Of a DNA stretch of 59,120 nucleotides, positions 42,523 through 48,622 are shown piece after piece. A program made the position numbers and the translations under genes. The DNA is from Methanomicrobia archaeon (GTDB lineage Archaea > Halobacteriota > Syntropharchaeia > Alkanophagales > Methanospirareceae): positions 1 through 59,120 of the forward strand of contig JAFGHB010000076.1 in assembly GCA_016930255.1 (NCBI GenBank), written 5' to 3'. Each line of letters begins with the position of its first letter. Positions within the stretch are counted from its first letter, which is position 1. The notes beneath the pieces are model-generated. The model was not told the DNA's origin. It was given only the letters and a program-made list of their open reading frames with translations, and ran no database searches.

Positions 42523-42927
42523 TTATTCTTTCGCAGCCTTTTTCTTCTTGTAATCTTTGATCGCCTCTTGCAGAGCGTTCGATGCCAGATTGGAGCAATG
42601 CATCTTCCGGGGCGGCAGACCCTCGAGCTCGTCCGCGACGTCACCACGGGTTATCTTCATCGCCTCGTCGACGTGCATCCCTTTCGCCATCTCGGTCACC
42701 ATGCTGCTCGTTGCGATCGCAGAGCCGCAGCCGAAGGTTCTGAACTTGATATCCGTGATAATATCGTTCTCTACTTTGATGAACATCTCCATGAGATCGC
42801 CGCAGACTGGATTCCCCACCTTCCCGTAGCCGTCGGGATTCTCTATAACACCGACGTTCCGCGGGTGCATGAAATGCTCCATTACCTTTTCAGTGTAGCC
42901 GATCTGTTCCACATCTAAATCTCCCAT
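42523..42927 (-). CDS. iscU: IscU-type Fe-S cluster scaffold protein
   Basis: IscU is the scaffold on which Fe-S clusters are assembled. The 134 residues show the three ligand cysteines in GNPVCGD, FGCGSAIATSS and MHCSNLAS, with the Asp after the first. The N-terminus YTEKVMEHFMHPRNVGVIENPDG is typical. The C-terminus ends in a Lys-rich tail. It lies 1.7 kb downstream, on the same strand, of an IscS homologue that lacks the PLP lysine, with an ion-channel gene between them. The Shine-Dalgarno is a weak AGGAAATACT. Confidence 0.93.
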   Translation of the reverse strand: MGDLDVEQIGYTEKVMEHFMHPRNVGVIENPDGYGKVGNPVCGDLMEMFIKVENDIITDIKFRTFGCGSAIATSSMVTEMAKGMHVDEAMKITRGDVADELEGLPPRKMHCSNLASNALQEAIKDYKKKKAAKE

Positions 42928-43087: not shown

Positions 43088-44305
43088 CTAACGTGAGACC
43101 TGGTAGGTGACCACGAAGATGATTAACGCCATCAACAGAATACCCAGTACGGATTCCGCAGCCACTAAGATCTGCGGCACGGGTCCAACTGCGAGGTTGG
43201 GCTGGATATTGGAATAGCCAAGGCTCGTGAAGGTCGTGATGCTGTGATAAACGTAATCGAGCCATCCAGGGGAAACCGTTTCGCCGTTCACGGTCTTGAC
43301 AATGCCGTTTGTTAACCAGAAGAGGACGGCGAAAAGGGCGATTATTGTTGCAGAAGCACCTATCGGTCGTTCAATTTTATCGCCATAGCCGGTGAGGGTT
43401 CGCAAGACGAAGAAGTCAAAAATCCAGGACTTCAACCAGTAAAATCTGCCTTTCTCTCGCAGTAACTTCCTGTATGCCTCGCCTCTCCGGTAGTGAACGC
43501 GCCCGGCTTGATCACGGCTACCGTTAGCAATGTAAAAATTGTAAAGGTTATTATAAACCTCGTAGGACGCTTCGAATTGCTCGGCACGGCTGCCTTCGTA
43601 GAGGTATTCTGATTGTATCTCTATACCCCGGTGGATTAGGTCTGAGAGCCCGTCTATAATGACGGTGTCGTCTTTGCGTCTTCTCCGGTTTTCGAGATTT
43701 TTACGAAGACCCCCGGATGGTCGATCGAAGAAAACGATTCGGGTGCCATCACGCGCATACCTTGCCAATCCGTCGTTATCCAAAATCGCTGCCGCAACAT
43801 CGGGATTTGCTTCTTCAATCTTATCCAGGTCAAGGACAGATATGGTCTCAGCACCGAGCGCATCTCCAATAAGCTCGTTGATCTCTTTGCCGTTTTCAGT
43901 ACGAAAAAGCTTCGCATGTCTGAAGCTCTTCGCTTCGTCGAAATAAGAGCGGAAAAGGTTGGCGTCAAATAATCGAGCATCTTCAAAAGCGGTTTCTGAG
44001 TCGAATCGTGCACCATGAAGATTAGTTCCTTGAAGAAAGGCTTCTTTTAAGTTTGCTTTCCGGAGGTTTGCCCACATTAGGTCTGCGTTCTGCAGATTCG
44101 CATTCGATGGGTTTGTGTTCTGCAGTTCAGCTGATTTTAGGTTTGCATTCTGAATTAAAGCCCTCGATAGGTTTGCATTCTGCAGTATAGCCATCCATAG
44201 GTATGCATTCTGCAGTTCAGCTAATTCTAGATTTGAATTCTGCAGTTTAGACGATCTTAGATCAGAATTACGCATTTTAGCAAACCATAGGTTTGAGCTG
44301 CTCAT
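43088..44305 (-). CDS. Pentapeptide-repeat ion channel (3' part of a gene split by in-frame TAA)
   Basis: Residues 1-100 are pentapeptide repeats of the A(N/D/E)Lxx type (ANLKS AELQN TNPSN ANLQN ADLMW ANLRK). A cytoplasmic helical region follows (about 100-300). Two transmembrane helices (about 312-335 and 380-402) flank a pore segment TTFTSLGYSNIQP, similar to K+ channel filters but with TSLGYSN instead of TVGYGD. The frame continues upstream without change into the 93-residue ORF at 44324-44605, separated only by a TAA. TTTGGAGCTGAA just before ATG 44305 could allow re-initiation. Selectivity cannot be told from the altered filter. Confidence 0.78.
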   Translation of the reverse strand: MSSSNLWFAKMRNSDLRSSKLQNSNLELAELQNAYLWMAILQNANLSRALIQNANLKSAELQNTNPSNANLQNADLMWANLRKANLKEAFLQGTNLHGARFDSETAFEDARLFDANLFRSYFDEAKSFRHAKLFRTENGKEINELIGDALGAETISVLDLDKIEEANPDVAAAILDNDGLARYARDGTRIVFFDRPSGGLRKNLENRRRRKDDTVIIDGLSDLIHRGIEIQSEYLYEGSRAEQFEASYEVYNNLYNFYIANGSRDQAGRVHYRRGEAYRKLLREKGRFYWLKSWIFDFFVLRTLTGYGDKIERPIGASATIIALFAVLFWLTNGIVKTVNGETVSPGWLDYVYHSITTFTSLGYSNIQPNLAVGPVPQILVAAESVLGILLMALIIFVVTYQVSR

Positions 44306-44323
44306 TTCAGCTCCAAATAGCTC

Positions 44324-44605
44324 TTAATTTTGCAGTTCAGCCATCTTTAGGTTCGCGTTACGCATTTTTACCCCTATTAGGTCCTTATTCTGCAGTTTAG
44401 CCTTCTTTAGGTAAGCACCGAAAATTGCTCTTTCCTTCAGCTCGTTGAGCATCTCCTGAGTGGGTTCTTTTCCCTCCACTTCTTTGTGCCAGTAGCAGCG
44501 CTCTTCTCCCGGGAGAGCTTTACGAGGGTATTCCCACATTTCAGTGGTAGACAATAATATTTCGTAGCTACATTTTGCCATTGTCGTATGCTTATACTTA
44601 CTCAA
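44324..44605 (-). CDS. N-terminal part of the pentapeptide-repeat channel gene
   Basis: This 93-residue ORF has a non-repeat head (EMWEYPRKALPGEERCYWHK, a short zinc-knuckle-like start seen at the front of some pentapeptide-repeat proteins), then begins pentapeptide repeats (GAYLKKAKLQNKDL ... ANLKMAELQN) and hits TAA at 44324-44326. In the same frame, six codons later, the next ORF begins and the five-residue register is kept across the stop. It is best seen as the 5' third of one gene interrupted by a nonsense codon. Confidence 0.65.
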   Translation of the reverse strand: MSKYKHTTMAKCSYEILLSTTEMWEYPRKALPGEERCYWHKEVEGKEPTQEMLNELKERAIFGAYLKKAKLQNKDLIGVKMRNANLKMAELQN

Positions 44606-44641: not shown

Positions 44642-45796
44642 TTACAGCGGCGAAAGCGCTCGCAGCCGCTGAACCGTCTCTTTAACCGCTTTGGTGATAT
44701 GCAGTATCTGTTCGGGCGTATTCGAACGGCCGAGTGTTATAACCATAGACCCGTGCGCCTCTTCATGTTTCAAGCCGATTGCCAGGAGCACGTGCGATGG
44801 CTCGAGGGTCTTGGACGAGCACGCGGAACCCGTGGATACCTGTATGTGGTACAGCGTATCCATATTCAACTGGATGCTTTCACCTTCTATGCGGCTGAAC
44901 CGGAAACTGGCATGGTGCGGGAGCCGTTGCGTGGGGTGTCCCGTGAGATACGCCTCTTCTATTAGCAGTATCTCTTTGACGAGTTCATCCCGTATTCTCG
45001 CGAGTCTCGTGCTCTCCTCTGCCATTTCAGCCTTCATTATCCGTGCCGCTTCGCCCATGCCCGCAATCGCGAAGACGTTCTCCGTGCCGGACCGGAGGCC
45101 GCGTTCCTGCCCGCCGCCAGGCAGGATCGATTGGAGCTTTACTCCTGGTTTCATATACAAAGCACCGGCACCTCGTGGCCCGTACAGATCGTTTGAAGAC
45201 AGGGTCAAGAGATCGATGCCGTCGTTTTGGACATCGATCGGGATGCGTCCAGCCGCAACAGTCGCATCCACGTGCAGATACAGACCCTTTTCGTGCACAA
45301 GCTCGCTGATCGCCTTGATCGGCTCAATGGTTCCGATCTCATTATTGGCATACATGATCGAGGTCACTGTCGTCTCTTTGGTCACGAATTCGTTCACGTT
45401 CTCAAGATCAACGAGACCTGTACTATCAACCGGAATAAGAGCAAATTCAAATCCACTTTTCTGCAGCTCTTTCATCGGGTTGAGCACCGACATGTGCTCG
45501 ATCGCGCTTGCCGCGACCTTCTTGCCTTTCCCCACGTTCCGAAGCGCCGTGCCCTTGATAGCGAGATTGTTGGATTCCGTTGCGCTGCCGGTAAAGATAA
45601 TACGGGCCGGGCTCTCTGCGTTTATCAGCTCCGCGACCTTCTTCCGTGCCTCTTCGACTGCCCGTTTCGCCTCCAAGCCGACCGAATAGAGCGCGAACGG
45701 ATTGCCAAAGTCCGCTCTCAGATACCGGTCGGCGAACGACAATACCCGCGGGTCAACGGGCATCGCCGCGGCGTGGTCCAGGTAGATCCGTTCCAT
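44642..45796 (-). CDS. iscS: IscS/NifS-like protein lacking the PLP-binding lysine
   Basis: This 384-residue class V aminotransferase-fold protein keeps the cysteine desulfurase frame: YLDHAAAMPVDP, FTGSATESNNLAIKG, EHMSVLNP, HVDATVAAGR and the catalytic-loop Cys in STGSACSSK (about 326). Where active enzymes have S(G/A)HK, this one reads LSSNDLYGPRG, so the Schiff-base Lys is Asp (about residue 203, codon at 45188-45190) and the preceding His is Asn. The usual Gln of HxDAxQ is Val. Archaeoglobus fulgidus IscS has the same Lys-to-Asp change, lacks PLP and has been reported inactive as a desulfurase. The start is ATG 45796. DsrE and TusA genes lie upstream. Confidence 0.88.
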   Translation of the reverse strand: MERIYLDHAAAMPVDPRVLSFADRYLRADFGNPFALYSVGLEAKRAVEEARKKVAELINAESPARIIFTGSATESNNLAIKGTALRNVGKGKKVAASAIEHMSVLNPMKELQKSGFEFALIPVDSTGLVDLENVNEFVTKETTVTSIMYANNEIGTIEPIKAISELVHEKGLYLHVDATVAAGRIPIDVQNDGIDLLTLSSNDLYGPRGAGALYMKPGVKLQSILPGGGQERGLRSGTENVFAIAGMGEAARIMKAEMAEESTRLARIRDELVKEILLIEEAYLTGHPTQRLPHHASFRFSRIEGESIQLNMDTLYHIQVSTGSACSSKTLEPSHVLLAIGLKHEEAHGSMVITLGRSNTPEQILHITKAVKETVQRLRALSPL

Positions 45797-45824: not shown

Positions 45825-46187
45825 CTAAAACCACATTGTCGCACCGGCCTCTAAGACCAGATCGTTCAGGGTCGCGGCACCGACAATCTTGACTCCTGGT
45901 ATTAGCTCCACTTTCTCCCATCCGAGCATCTGCTTTGACGCCTCACACACATAGATCTCAATTCCCATCTCCAGAGTCTTCTGGAGCATTTCCGCAACGC
46001 TCGGGAAAGTTCCGAGTTTGATCTTCTCTGCCTCGCCCGGAAGCAAGATCTTCAAACCCATTCCCAGATAGTACACCATCGGTTTCAGATCCATGGCCTT
46101 CGCCGTCTGGGCCAAAACCAGTGGCGAATACTGTCGTTCTGGAGCGTCGCTCGTCTGCACATACAAGATCGAGTTCTCATCTTTCAT
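45825..46187 (-). CDS. DsrE-family sulfur-carrier-like protein
   Basis: This 120-residue protein has the DsrE/F/YchN alpha-beta fold pattern: ILYVQTSDAPERQYSPLVLA, VYYLGMGLKIL, and MGIEIYVCEASKQMLGW with the single conserved Cys of the family in the YVC position. Such proteins pass persulfide sulfur in relays with TusA. It is placed between tusA-like and iscS-like genes on the same strand, 28 bases from the latter's ATG, so it probably belongs to the same sulfur-transfer unit. Confidence 0.85.
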   Translation of the reverse strand: MKDENSILYVQTSDAPERQYSPLVLAQTAKAMDLKPMVYYLGMGLKILLPGEAEKIKLGTFPSVAEMLQKTLEMGIEIYVCEASKQMLGWEKVELIPGVKIVGAATLNDLVLEAGATMWF

Positions 46188-46244: not shown

Positions 46245-46526
46245 TCATTTCGTCCTTCGTATGAAGAAGGTCAAAATTGTCCCCTCTTTCTCAAATTTCA
46301 AAATCTCATGCCCGGTTCGCTTCGCCCAGCGTTTGATGTCCTCTTCAGCCGCGGGGTCGTCCGCCTCCACCCTCAACACCTGCCCCACTTCGATCTTTTC
46401 TATCTCCTCCTTCGTCATCGCAATTGGCATCGGGCAGTAGAGCCCCACACAGTCCAGTTCCGCATCCGGAACGATATCAGAATCCATCGTCACGTCAAAA
46501 CCTCCGCTTATTACCTCATACTTCAT
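46245..46526 (-). CDS. tusA: TusA/SirA-family sulfurtransferase
   Basis: TusA carries persulfide sulfur. The 93-residue product has the family signature LDCVGLYCPMPIAM, with the CPxP cysteine, and EVGQVLRVEADDPAA then DIKRWAKRTGHEIL. The start is ATG 46526 (MKYEVISGG); the open frame to 46619 has no supporting features. An N-terminal extension of about 20 residues precedes the core. It heads a minus-strand run TusA - DsrE - IscS-like. Confidence 0.88.
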   Translation of the reverse strand: MKYEVISGGFDVTMDSDIVPDAELDCVGLYCPMPIAMTKEEIEKIEVGQVLRVEADDPAAEEDIKRWAKRTGHEILKFEKEGTILTFFIRRTK

Positions 46527-47282: not shown

Positions 47283-47690
47283 ATGAGCAATACAAAAAAA
47301 GAGAATGAGAACGCTTGCAATAAAAATTTTGTGTTGGATACAAACTTTTACCTCCATTATAAGCTTTTTACAGAACTTGATTGGAAGTCACTGTTGGGAT
47401 GTAATAATCTAATATTGATAGTGCCTCCAACCGTCATAAAAGAACTTGACGATAAAAAATTTTCTGCTCCCAACTCACGAATAAAAAGAAGAGCTCAAGA
47501 AGTAATCTCAAAATTCCGGGATATCAGCGAAGGTAAATCTATACCTTGTGGATTCCAAATAAACTTTCTAGAGTCAATTATCGAGGAAAAGGCTTTGAGA
47601 GACCTACATCTAAACCCCGATAACAGTGATGACAAAATTATAGCCGCGACTCTTGCCTTTAGAGAACAAAATGCTGATGAAAGGTATTAA
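47283..47690 (+). CDS. PIN-domain protein, N-terminal fragment (frameshifted)
   Basis: This ORF encodes most of a PIN ribonuclease domain: FVLDTNFYLHYKLF with the first acidic residue, PPTVIKELDDKK with the second, and NPDNSDDKIIAATLAF with the third. The domain's last strand is in another frame: LIISADFGMQLKAKSHGVKV runs directly into the next ORF. One indel near 47680-47695 thus breaks a single gene of about 445 codons (47283-48622). The region is AT-rich relative to the neighbours. The arrangement resembles PIN-domain proteins with long C-terminal extensions, not a toxin-antitoxin pair. Confidence 0.7.
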   Translation: MSNTKKENENACNKNFVLDTNFYLHYKLFTELDWKSLLGCNNLILIVPPTVIKELDDKKFSAPNSRIKRRAQEVISKFRDISEGKSIPCGFQINFLESIIEEKALRDLHLNPDNSDDKIIAATLAFREQNADERY

Positions 47691-47710
47691 TCATTTCTGC
47701 TGATTTTGGG

Positions 47711-48622
47711 ATGCAACTTAAAGCAAAAAGCCATGGTGTCAAAGTTGTACTTCCGCCAGATGACTGGATAAGAGAAACTAAGGATTCTCGCGATAAAGAA
47801 ATCGCATCCCTAAAAGCAGAACTTCAGAAATCCCAGAATGCGCTACCTGATGTTCAACTATTATTTTTCACAGAGGATAATTTGGTACCCGTTCTCAAAA
47901 TAGATAAGAATAAACTTTTGGAAGGTATCCTTACTGATGAAGATATTGAAGCAAAATTGGAACAAGAACATAAAGAAGTAAAGCCAATAGGAACCGTCAA
48001 TACTATAAACACTGGATTTATATCCAAAAAAGAAATTAGGATTTATAATAGTGCAGTACGCGAATATATGGAGGAATATCGTAAGTATCTTAATGATGTT
48101 AAAGGAATTCAAGAGCTATGTTTAACAATGGAACTATCCCCTGTCTTGGACAATAAGGGAAATTCTCCCGCCGAGAACGTTGATATTTTTCTCCAATTTC
48201 CTAACGATTGGGTCGATTTTCCTAATGATATTGAACTATTGGAAGAATCAGAGCTTCTTGGATTTCCCGAAAAGCCTGCCAGACCCAACCTGCCAAAAAC
48301 AGATATTGCATCGATCTGGGGTGGTATTCAAACTCTATCGGAGTTGAGGGCTATACCAACCATCTCACCCTATGCAGAAAGGAAGCCTGTTAATCAGATC
48401 GGCCCCGAAATCGATAAATCAAAGATGTCTGTACACTATTGGCTTGGAAATTTAAAGCATGGCATGGAAATAGAACTAAAACCCCTATATGTTTGGTATT
48501 CCTCAGTTAACGCAATAAATACATTTAAAATTAAATATTCGATTAATATTGGTAATTCCCCCGAAGTGAAAGAAGGGGAATTGGTGGTAGTAATCATAAG
48601 TGAAGAAACATCTGATCACTGA
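47711..48622 (+). CDS. C-terminal part of the frameshifted PIN-domain gene
   Basis: The frame opens upstream of the ATG at 47711 with LIISADFG, the final PIN strand, so this is the continuation of the gene at 47283. After the PIN domain come a coiled-coil-like stretch (EIASLKAELQKSQNAL) and a long uncharacterised domain of about 250 residues with a beta-rich end (MEIELKPLYVWYSSVNAINT). I do not recognise the C-terminal domain. Either an inactivating indel or a sequence error separates the two parts. Confidence 0.6.
   Translation: MQLKAKSHGVKVVLPPDDWIRETKDSRDKEIASLKAELQKSQNALPDVQLLFFTEDNLVPVLKIDKNKLLEGILTDEDIEAKLEQEHKEVKPIGTVNTINTGFISKKEIRIYNSAVREYMEEYRKYLNDVKGIQELCLTMELSPVLDNKGNSPAENVDIFLQFPNDWVDFPNDIELLEESELLGFPEKPARPNLPKTDIASIWGGIQTLSELRAIPTISPYAERKPVNQIGPEIDKSKMSVHYWLGNLKHGMEIELKPLYVWYSSVNAINTFKIKYSINIGNSPEVKEGELVVVIISEETSDH

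What the first reader, a model, noticed from the sequence alone, without database searches (positions are those of the whole stretch)
44642..45796. IscS homologue with Asp in place of the PLP lysine, beside IscU, TusA and DsrE
The Schiff-base lysine of the S(G/A)HK motif is Asp (codon 45188-45190), the His before it is Asn, and the Gln of HxDAxQ is Val, while the persulfide Cys remains. The same Lys-to-Asp change is known in Archaeoglobus fulgidus IscS, which lacks PLP. Here the gene follows TusA and DsrE, so sulfur may come through a relay rather than from cysteine, with IscS serving as a cysteine-ligand or docking partner of IscU.
Basis: partly seen in the sequence, partly recalled or inferred. 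Interest (0 to 1): 0.6.

Follow-up and report, generated by a model that had tools for sequence, protein, structure and literature searches.

The report
Desulfurase-dead IscS in sulfur-relay cassette

Summary
The ORF (minus strand, 45796-44642, 384 aa) has Asp203 (codon GAT) in place of the PLP lysine, plus Asn202, Val180 and Cys326. It is an orthologue of the crystallised Archaeoglobus fulgidus IscS (51% identity), so the Lys-to-Asp protein itself is known. What I did not find described in the open-access library is the setting. Asp-type IscS forms one clade spread over archaea and some bacteria; 56 of 57 testable members have TusA and/or DsrE directly upstream, against 0 of 74 Lys-type IscS. 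IscU follows in 54 of 56. The sulfur-carrying cysteines of all four proteins are essentially invariant. A. fulgidus itself has this cassette, and eight Archaeoglobaceae genomes show no Lys-type desulfurase. A second Lys-less group (Thr-type, Methanosarcinaceae IscS1, 30 of 30) also mostly has TusA plus a different DsrE (24 of 30). Best explanation: a desulfurase-dead IscS partnering IscU, with TusA/DsrE supplying sulfur. That it is no conventional desulfurase is near certain; the relay and its direction are inferred from conservation only. This genome does hold a SufS-type lysine desulfurase, beside FdhD and MoaE.

The parts
44642..45796 (-). Lys-less (Asp-type) IscS homologue, 384 aa
   Evidence: Pfam Aminotran_5 241.9 bits; 51-53% identical to A. 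fulgidus IscS 4eb5; AlphaFold2 pLDDT 89.4 and TM 0.93 to 4eb5
45188..45190 (-). codon GAT, Asp203 in place of the PLP Schiff-base lysine
   Evidence: Asp in 57/59 clade members, Lys in 86/86 Lys-type
44819..44821 (-). Cys326, persulfide/ligand cysteine of the mobile loop (position computed from residue number)
   Evidence: Cys in 59/59 of the clade and 86/86 Lys-type; loop 326-331 is low-confidence, i.e. probably mobile, in the model
44741..44743 (-). Val352 in place of the substrate-carboxylate arginine (E. coli Arg354) (position computed from residue number)
45825..46187 (-). DsrE-family sulfur carrier, 120 aa, cysteine conserved
   Evidence: Pfam PF02635/PF13686; cysteine 41/41 in cassette DsrE
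46245..46523 (-). TusA (ORF can start further upstream), the only TusA of the genome
   Evidence: Pfam PF01206 88 bits; only match in the genome; CPxP cysteine 53/53
42523..42927 (-). IscU scaffold with three cysteines, Asp and LPPRK
   Evidence: Pfam PF01592, NCBIfam TIGR03419 above cut-off; Cys and Asp 56-57 of 56-57 in cassette IscU
43088..44605 (-). pentapeptide-repeat/ion-channel ORFs (two pieces) inserted between iscS and iscU in this lineage; probably not part of the module
   Evidence: Pfam PF00805, PF07885; in most relatives iscU follows iscS by 0-30 bp

Best explanation
This is a desulfurase-dead IscS in a conserved TusA-DsrE-IscS-IscU module. Because the lysine and the substrate arginine are gone, it cannot run the normal PLP reaction on cysteine. 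It keeps the IscS fold and the mobile-loop cysteine, and is inferred to dock IscU. Persulfide sulfur would be brought by TusA and DsrE and passed to Cys326 and/or directly to IscU, with Cys326 acting as transfer thiol or as temporary cluster ligand as in the A. fulgidus IscS-IscU structure. Shown here: catalytic residues lost, cysteines kept, gene linkage, purifying selection. Inferred: complex formation, sulfur flow and its direction, and the ultimate donor (sulfide or polysulfide; in this genome possibly also the SufS-type enzyme).
For: Loss of Lys, Gln, His and Arg across one clade with Cys 59/59. TusA and/or DsrE directly upstream on the same strand in 56/57 Lys-less loci against 0/74 Lys-type, and IscU downstream in 54/56. 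The one exception, L168, keeps a DsrE C-terminal remnant read into the IscS frame. Carrier cysteines invariant: TusA 53/53, DsrE 41/41, IscU 57/57. A. fulgidus has the full cassette (L152) and a DsrE-IscS-IscU copy (L151). Eight Archaeoglobaceae genomes have only Asp-type IscS and, in seven, one class-V aminotransferase of another kind. A second Lys-less group (Thr, 30/30) has TusA plus a DsrE of another subgroup in 24/30. dN/dS about 0.06. A. fulgidus IscS has no desulfurase activity (PMC7585200). DsrE takes up sulfide as a persulfide and DsrEFH passes it on in Allochromatium (PMC3397948).
Against: No experiment shows transfer from TusA or DsrE to IscS or IscU in such a system. The Asp clade is monophyletic, so the 56/57 is one evolutionary association, not many independent ones; whether the Thr group is independent is unresolved (AU p 0.42 and 0.71). 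Some Archaeoglobaceae members have only TusA or only DsrE. Known TusA biology runs the other way, IscS to TusA (PMC2854127). The TusA footprint on E. coli IscS is only partly kept here. The Lys-type sample is the nearest relatives, not all IscS.
Confidence: 0.55

Rival explanations
1. Docking/ligand only: IscS lends Cys326 as a cluster ligand and stabilises IscU, free sulfide supplies the sulfur, and TusA/DsrE serve a neighbouring task such as tRNA thiolation.
For: The A. fulgidus IscS-IscU structure has the IscS cysteine as cluster ligand (PMC7585200, PMC9769115). Sulfide can feed IscU without IscS in E. coli (PMC13015791) and feeds SMS in M. jannaschii (PMC12192291).
Against: Does not explain why TusA/DsrE are joined to Lys-less but never to the sampled Lys-type IscS, nor why the DsrE-IscS boundary is often within a few bases.
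Confidence: 0.25
2. Cysteine is still the source: a separate lysine-bearing SufS-type desulfurase loads TusA, and TusA/DsrE carry that sulfur to IscS/IscU.
For: The genome holds one SufS-type enzyme with intact motifs; most non-Archaeoglobaceae carriers have Lys-type enzymes too.
Against: That gene sits 4 bp from FdhD and near MoaE, pointing to Mo/W enzymes; eight Archaeoglobaceae genomes carry the Asp-type module without any such enzyme.
Confidence: 0.13
3. A different PLP/PMP-dependent reaction persists without the lysine.
For: H101, D177 and T73 of the PLP pocket are kept; I recall a PMP-bound recombinant A. fulgidus protein (unverified).
Against: Substrate arginine and Gln are lost too; A. 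fulgidus IscS is reported inactive.
Confidence: 0.05
4. Pseudogene, assembly or sequencing error.
For: None found beyond the fragmented draft assembly.
Against: Conserved in 59 distinct sequences, dN/dS about 0.06, invariant Cys.
Confidence: 0.01

Closest known systems
Archaeoglobus fulgidus IscS2 (PDB 4EB5, 4EB7, 4HVK; D199K variant 4R5F)
   Same: Asp in place of Lys, loop Cys kept, 51-53% identity, same fold (TM 0.93), IscU partner; its genome also has DsrE/TusA next to it
   Different: About half the residues differ; in this window iscU is separated from iscS by a pentapeptide gene; a SufS-type desulfurase exists here
Methanosarcina acetivorans IscS1/IscU1 (MA0808/MA0807)
   Same: Lys-less IscS with TusA and DsrE-family genes upstream and IscU downstream
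   Different: Lys is Thr, His104 is Asp, Arg354 kept; DsrE of another subgroup; IscU fused to an FeS_assembly_P domain
Canonical ISC (E. coli IscS-IscU; TusA accepting sulfur from IscS)
   Same: Fold, loop cysteine, IscU scaffold residues, TusA family
   Different: PLP lysine, Gln, His and Arg lost; TusA/DsrE encoded in the same cassette; no iscA, hscBA or fdx seen beside it
MIS and SMS minimal Fe-S systems
   Same: Few-component Fe-S assembly in anaerobes; sulfide-driven SMS shows a desulfurase is dispensable (PMC12192291)
   Different: MIS is described with a cysteine desulfurase; SMS uses SufBC

Membership tests
IscS/NifS group I cysteine desulfurase (as an active enzyme) | PLP Schiff-base lysine | tested here: not met
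   Asp203
IscS/NifS group I cysteine desulfurase (as an active enzyme) | substrate-carboxylate arginine (E. coli Arg354) | tested here: not met
   Val352
IscS/NifS group I cysteine desulfurase (as an active enzyme) | mobile-loop persulfide cysteine | tested here: met
   Cys326
IscS/NifS group I cysteine desulfurase (as an active enzyme) | desulfurase activity | not testable with these tools
   needs protein
IscS/NifS group I cysteine desulfurase (as an active enzyme) | NCBIfam equivalog cut-offs (TIGR03402, TIGR02006) | tested here: not met
   420.1 against 530.75 and 389.1 against 643.2 bits
A. fulgidus-type Lys-less IscS | Lys replaced by Asp, loop Cys kept | tested here: met
A. fulgidus-type Lys-less IscS | same clade as A. 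fulgidus IscS | tested here: met
   one clade, SH-aLRT 95-97 with diagnostic columns masked
A. fulgidus-type Lys-less IscS | binds IscU and lends a cysteine ligand | not testable with these tools
   IscU gene linked in 54/56; needs protein
TusA | PF01206 match with CPxP cysteine | tested here: met
DsrE family | PF02635 match with conserved cysteine | tested here: met
IscU | three cysteines, Asp, LPPxK | tested here: met

The most novel reading that the evidence does not exclude
A widespread ISC variant in anaerobic archaea and some bacteria has replaced cysteine desulfuration by a dedicated TusA-DsrE persulfide relay, turning IscS into a non-catalytic sulfur-transfer and IscU-docking protein; this may have evolved twice (Asp-type and Thr-type) with different DsrE subgroups.
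Probability: 0.45. Interest if true: 0.75.

Novelty: new variant of a known kind. Interest (0 to 1): 0.55.

Why it matters
The crystallised A. fulgidus IscS-IscU complex is used as a model of Fe-S assembly, yet where its sulfur comes from is unexplained because the enzyme is dead. A conserved TusA-DsrE-IscS-IscU cassette, present in A. fulgidus itself, names candidate donors and makes the question directly testable. It would also show how an enzyme can be kept as a non-catalytic sulfur-relay partner in anaerobes.

Tried and rejected
Pseudogene or sequencing error: rejected by conservation and dN/dS. Independent loss of Lys in the Methanosarcinaceae Thr group: free trees place it apart, and its losses differ (H104D, N155Q, Q183H, T243V, Arg kept), but a joint clade is not rejected, so I do not claim independence. 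A TusA-docking signature on IscS: W45/E49/D52 positions inconclusive. Fisher p of 1e-36 for the linkage is not used as evidence strength because the clade is one lineage. Promoter and terminator scans gave chance levels. Paper searches found no description of the TusA/DsrE linkage, but most subscription papers are not held.

Full report
What is there. The gene at 44642-45796 is on the minus strand and encodes 384 residues. Asp203 (GAT at 45190-45188), Asn202 and Val180 replace the lysine, histidine and glutamine of the PLP site, and Cys326 is kept. The nearest solved structures are A. fulgidus IscS 4EB5/4HVK and its D199K form 4R5F. A structure model (pLDDT 89.4, pTM 0.89) matches 4EB5 with TM 0.93, and the cysteine loop 326-331 is among the low-confidence, probably mobile parts. 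On the same strand lie TusA, DsrE, IscS, two pentapeptide/ion-channel ORFs and IscU. The wider window carries ferritin, Zip, MntP, a copper-type P-ATPase, glutaredoxin and ferredoxin-thioredoxin reductase genes.

Is the change real and old? Yes. I collected 59 distinct sequences of the clade. 57 have Asp, one Ala, one Gln, none Lys; every one keeps the cysteine. All 86 more distant IscS sequences in the comparison have Lys, the Thr-type group described below being counted apart. The clade also loses Q183 (to Ala; Val in this window), H205 (to Asn) and the substrate arginine R354 (to Val/Leu), while H104, D180 and T76 (E. coli numbers) remain. New clade-specific residues appear (R86, S103, N106 invariant, R299 and E346 nearly so). 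With the diagnostic columns masked the clade is one side of a branch with SH-aLRT 95-97. dN/dS between window and near relatives is 0.05-0.07, with dS near saturation. This is a maintained protein with a changed role.

The genomic association. In loci with at least 900 bp upstream, 56 of 57 Lys-less IscS have TusA and/or DsrE on the same strand within 3 kb, usually abutting, and 35 have both; 0 of 74 Lys-type IscS have either. IscU follows in 54 of 56 Lys-less loci, and in 63 of 73 Lys-type loci. The exception L168 starts with NDLAPDAGAAMWF, a remnant of the DsrE C-terminus, read into the IscS frame. In several loci of Methanocellales-, Thermoplasmata-, Cloacimonadota- and WOR-3-labelled contigs the cassette sits in an oxidative-stress island with Fur, rubrerythrin, desulfoferrodoxin, flavodiiron protein, peroxiredoxin, hybrid-cluster protein and Nfu. 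Carrier cysteines are conserved: TusA CPxP 53/53, DsrE 41/41, IscU three Cys and Asp 56-57 of 56-57. All this is one lineage, so it shows a long-lived linkage across an apparently horizontal spread, not repeated independent events.

A. fulgidus. Genome G135 holds a 100% match to the crystallised IscS and an 87% paralogue. The paralogue lies in TusA-DsrE-IscS-IscU (L152), the crystallised one in DsrE-IscS-IscU (L151). G135 and seven further Archaeoglobaceae genomes (G122, G109, G180, G052, G061, G069, G148) have no other class-V protein above E 1e-20 except, in seven of the eight, one that by its sequence (IPGPVQLHERI, SQKCLGAPPG) looks like a serine/alanine-glyoxylate-type aminotransferase. 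By this search they have no lysine-bearing IscS or SufS.

A second Lys-less group. Methanosarcinaceae IscS1 (MA0808 in M. acetivorans; [quoted passage not shown] Its decay pattern differs (H104D, N155Q, Q183H, T243V, arginine kept), but trees cannot exclude a common origin with the Asp clade (AU p 0.42-0.71). Caveat from my own knowledge: YedF-type TusA-DsrE fusions occur near another class-V desulfurase subfamily, so such linkage is not exclusive to dead enzymes outside the IscS sample.

In this genome. The Lys-bearing desulfurase is SufS-type (TIGR01979 462.5 bits, just under its cut-off), 4 bp from FdhD and near MoaE. The cassette TusA is the only TusA. SufBC (SMS-like) is present, as are two other NifU_N proteins, one lacking the cysteines.

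Mechanism. Near certain: this is not a normal cysteine desulfurase. Likely: it partners IscU as in A. fulgidus. Inferred: TusA/DsrE bring persulfide. Precedents are DsrE taking sulfide as persulfide and DsrEFH passing it on (PMC3397948), sulfide feeding IscU without IscS in E. coli (PMC13015791), and sulfide feeding SMS (PMC12192291). Direction is open, since in E. coli IscS gives sulfur to TusA (PMC2854127).

Novelty. The Lys-to-Asp IscS is known. The conserved cassette, its presence in A. fulgidus itself, and its recurrence with the Thr-type were not found in the library searched, which lacks most subscription papers.

Noticed in passing
G000 contig C83, L222:4854-5312 (+): A NifU_N/IscU-like protein whose scaffold cysteines are replaced (ITDSEGD, TEAHGP); a second degenerate member of the Fe-S machinery in the same genome.
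   Followed up: partly
window 43088-44605 (-): Pentapeptide-repeat protein with an ion-channel domain, in two ORFs separated by a stop, inserted between iscS and iscU; L009 of the same genus has about 1 kb without a long forward ORF at this place.
   Followed up: partly
L209:770-1432 and relatives (Methanosarcinaceae IscU1): IscU1 is fused to an FeS_assembly_P (PF01883) domain, beside the Thr-type IscS.
   Followed up: partly
L168:4185-5393: An Asp-type IscS that lost TusA/DsrE but starts with a remnant of the DsrE C-terminus, now behind TPP-enzyme and ferredoxin genes (probable oxoacid oxidoreductase).
   Followed up: partly
L039, L042, L045, L046, L048, L053: The cassette occurs in contigs labelled WOR-3, Cloacimonadota, Desulfobacterales, Deltaproteobacteria and Syntrophomonas; transfer or mis-binning. 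L046 lies on a 2.5 Mb contig, so mis-binning is unlikely there.
   Followed up: no
L012/L144 (G026:C47): The Asp-type IscS of this genome has one in-frame TAA; error or decay.
   Followed up: no
L220 (G000:C21): SufBC genes of this genome lie beside ORFs that look like peroxiredoxin, rubrerythrin and flavodiiron protein (read by eye), another redox-stress neighbourhood for Fe-S assembly.
   Followed up: no
window 47283-48622 (+): PIN-domain ORF followed after a stop by a 303-aa ORF without Pfam match; possibly one interrupted gene.
   Followed up: no
L166 (G022:C105): A Lys-type IscS is encoded divergently right beside a complete TusA-DsrE-IscS(Asp)-IscU cassette.
   Followed up: no
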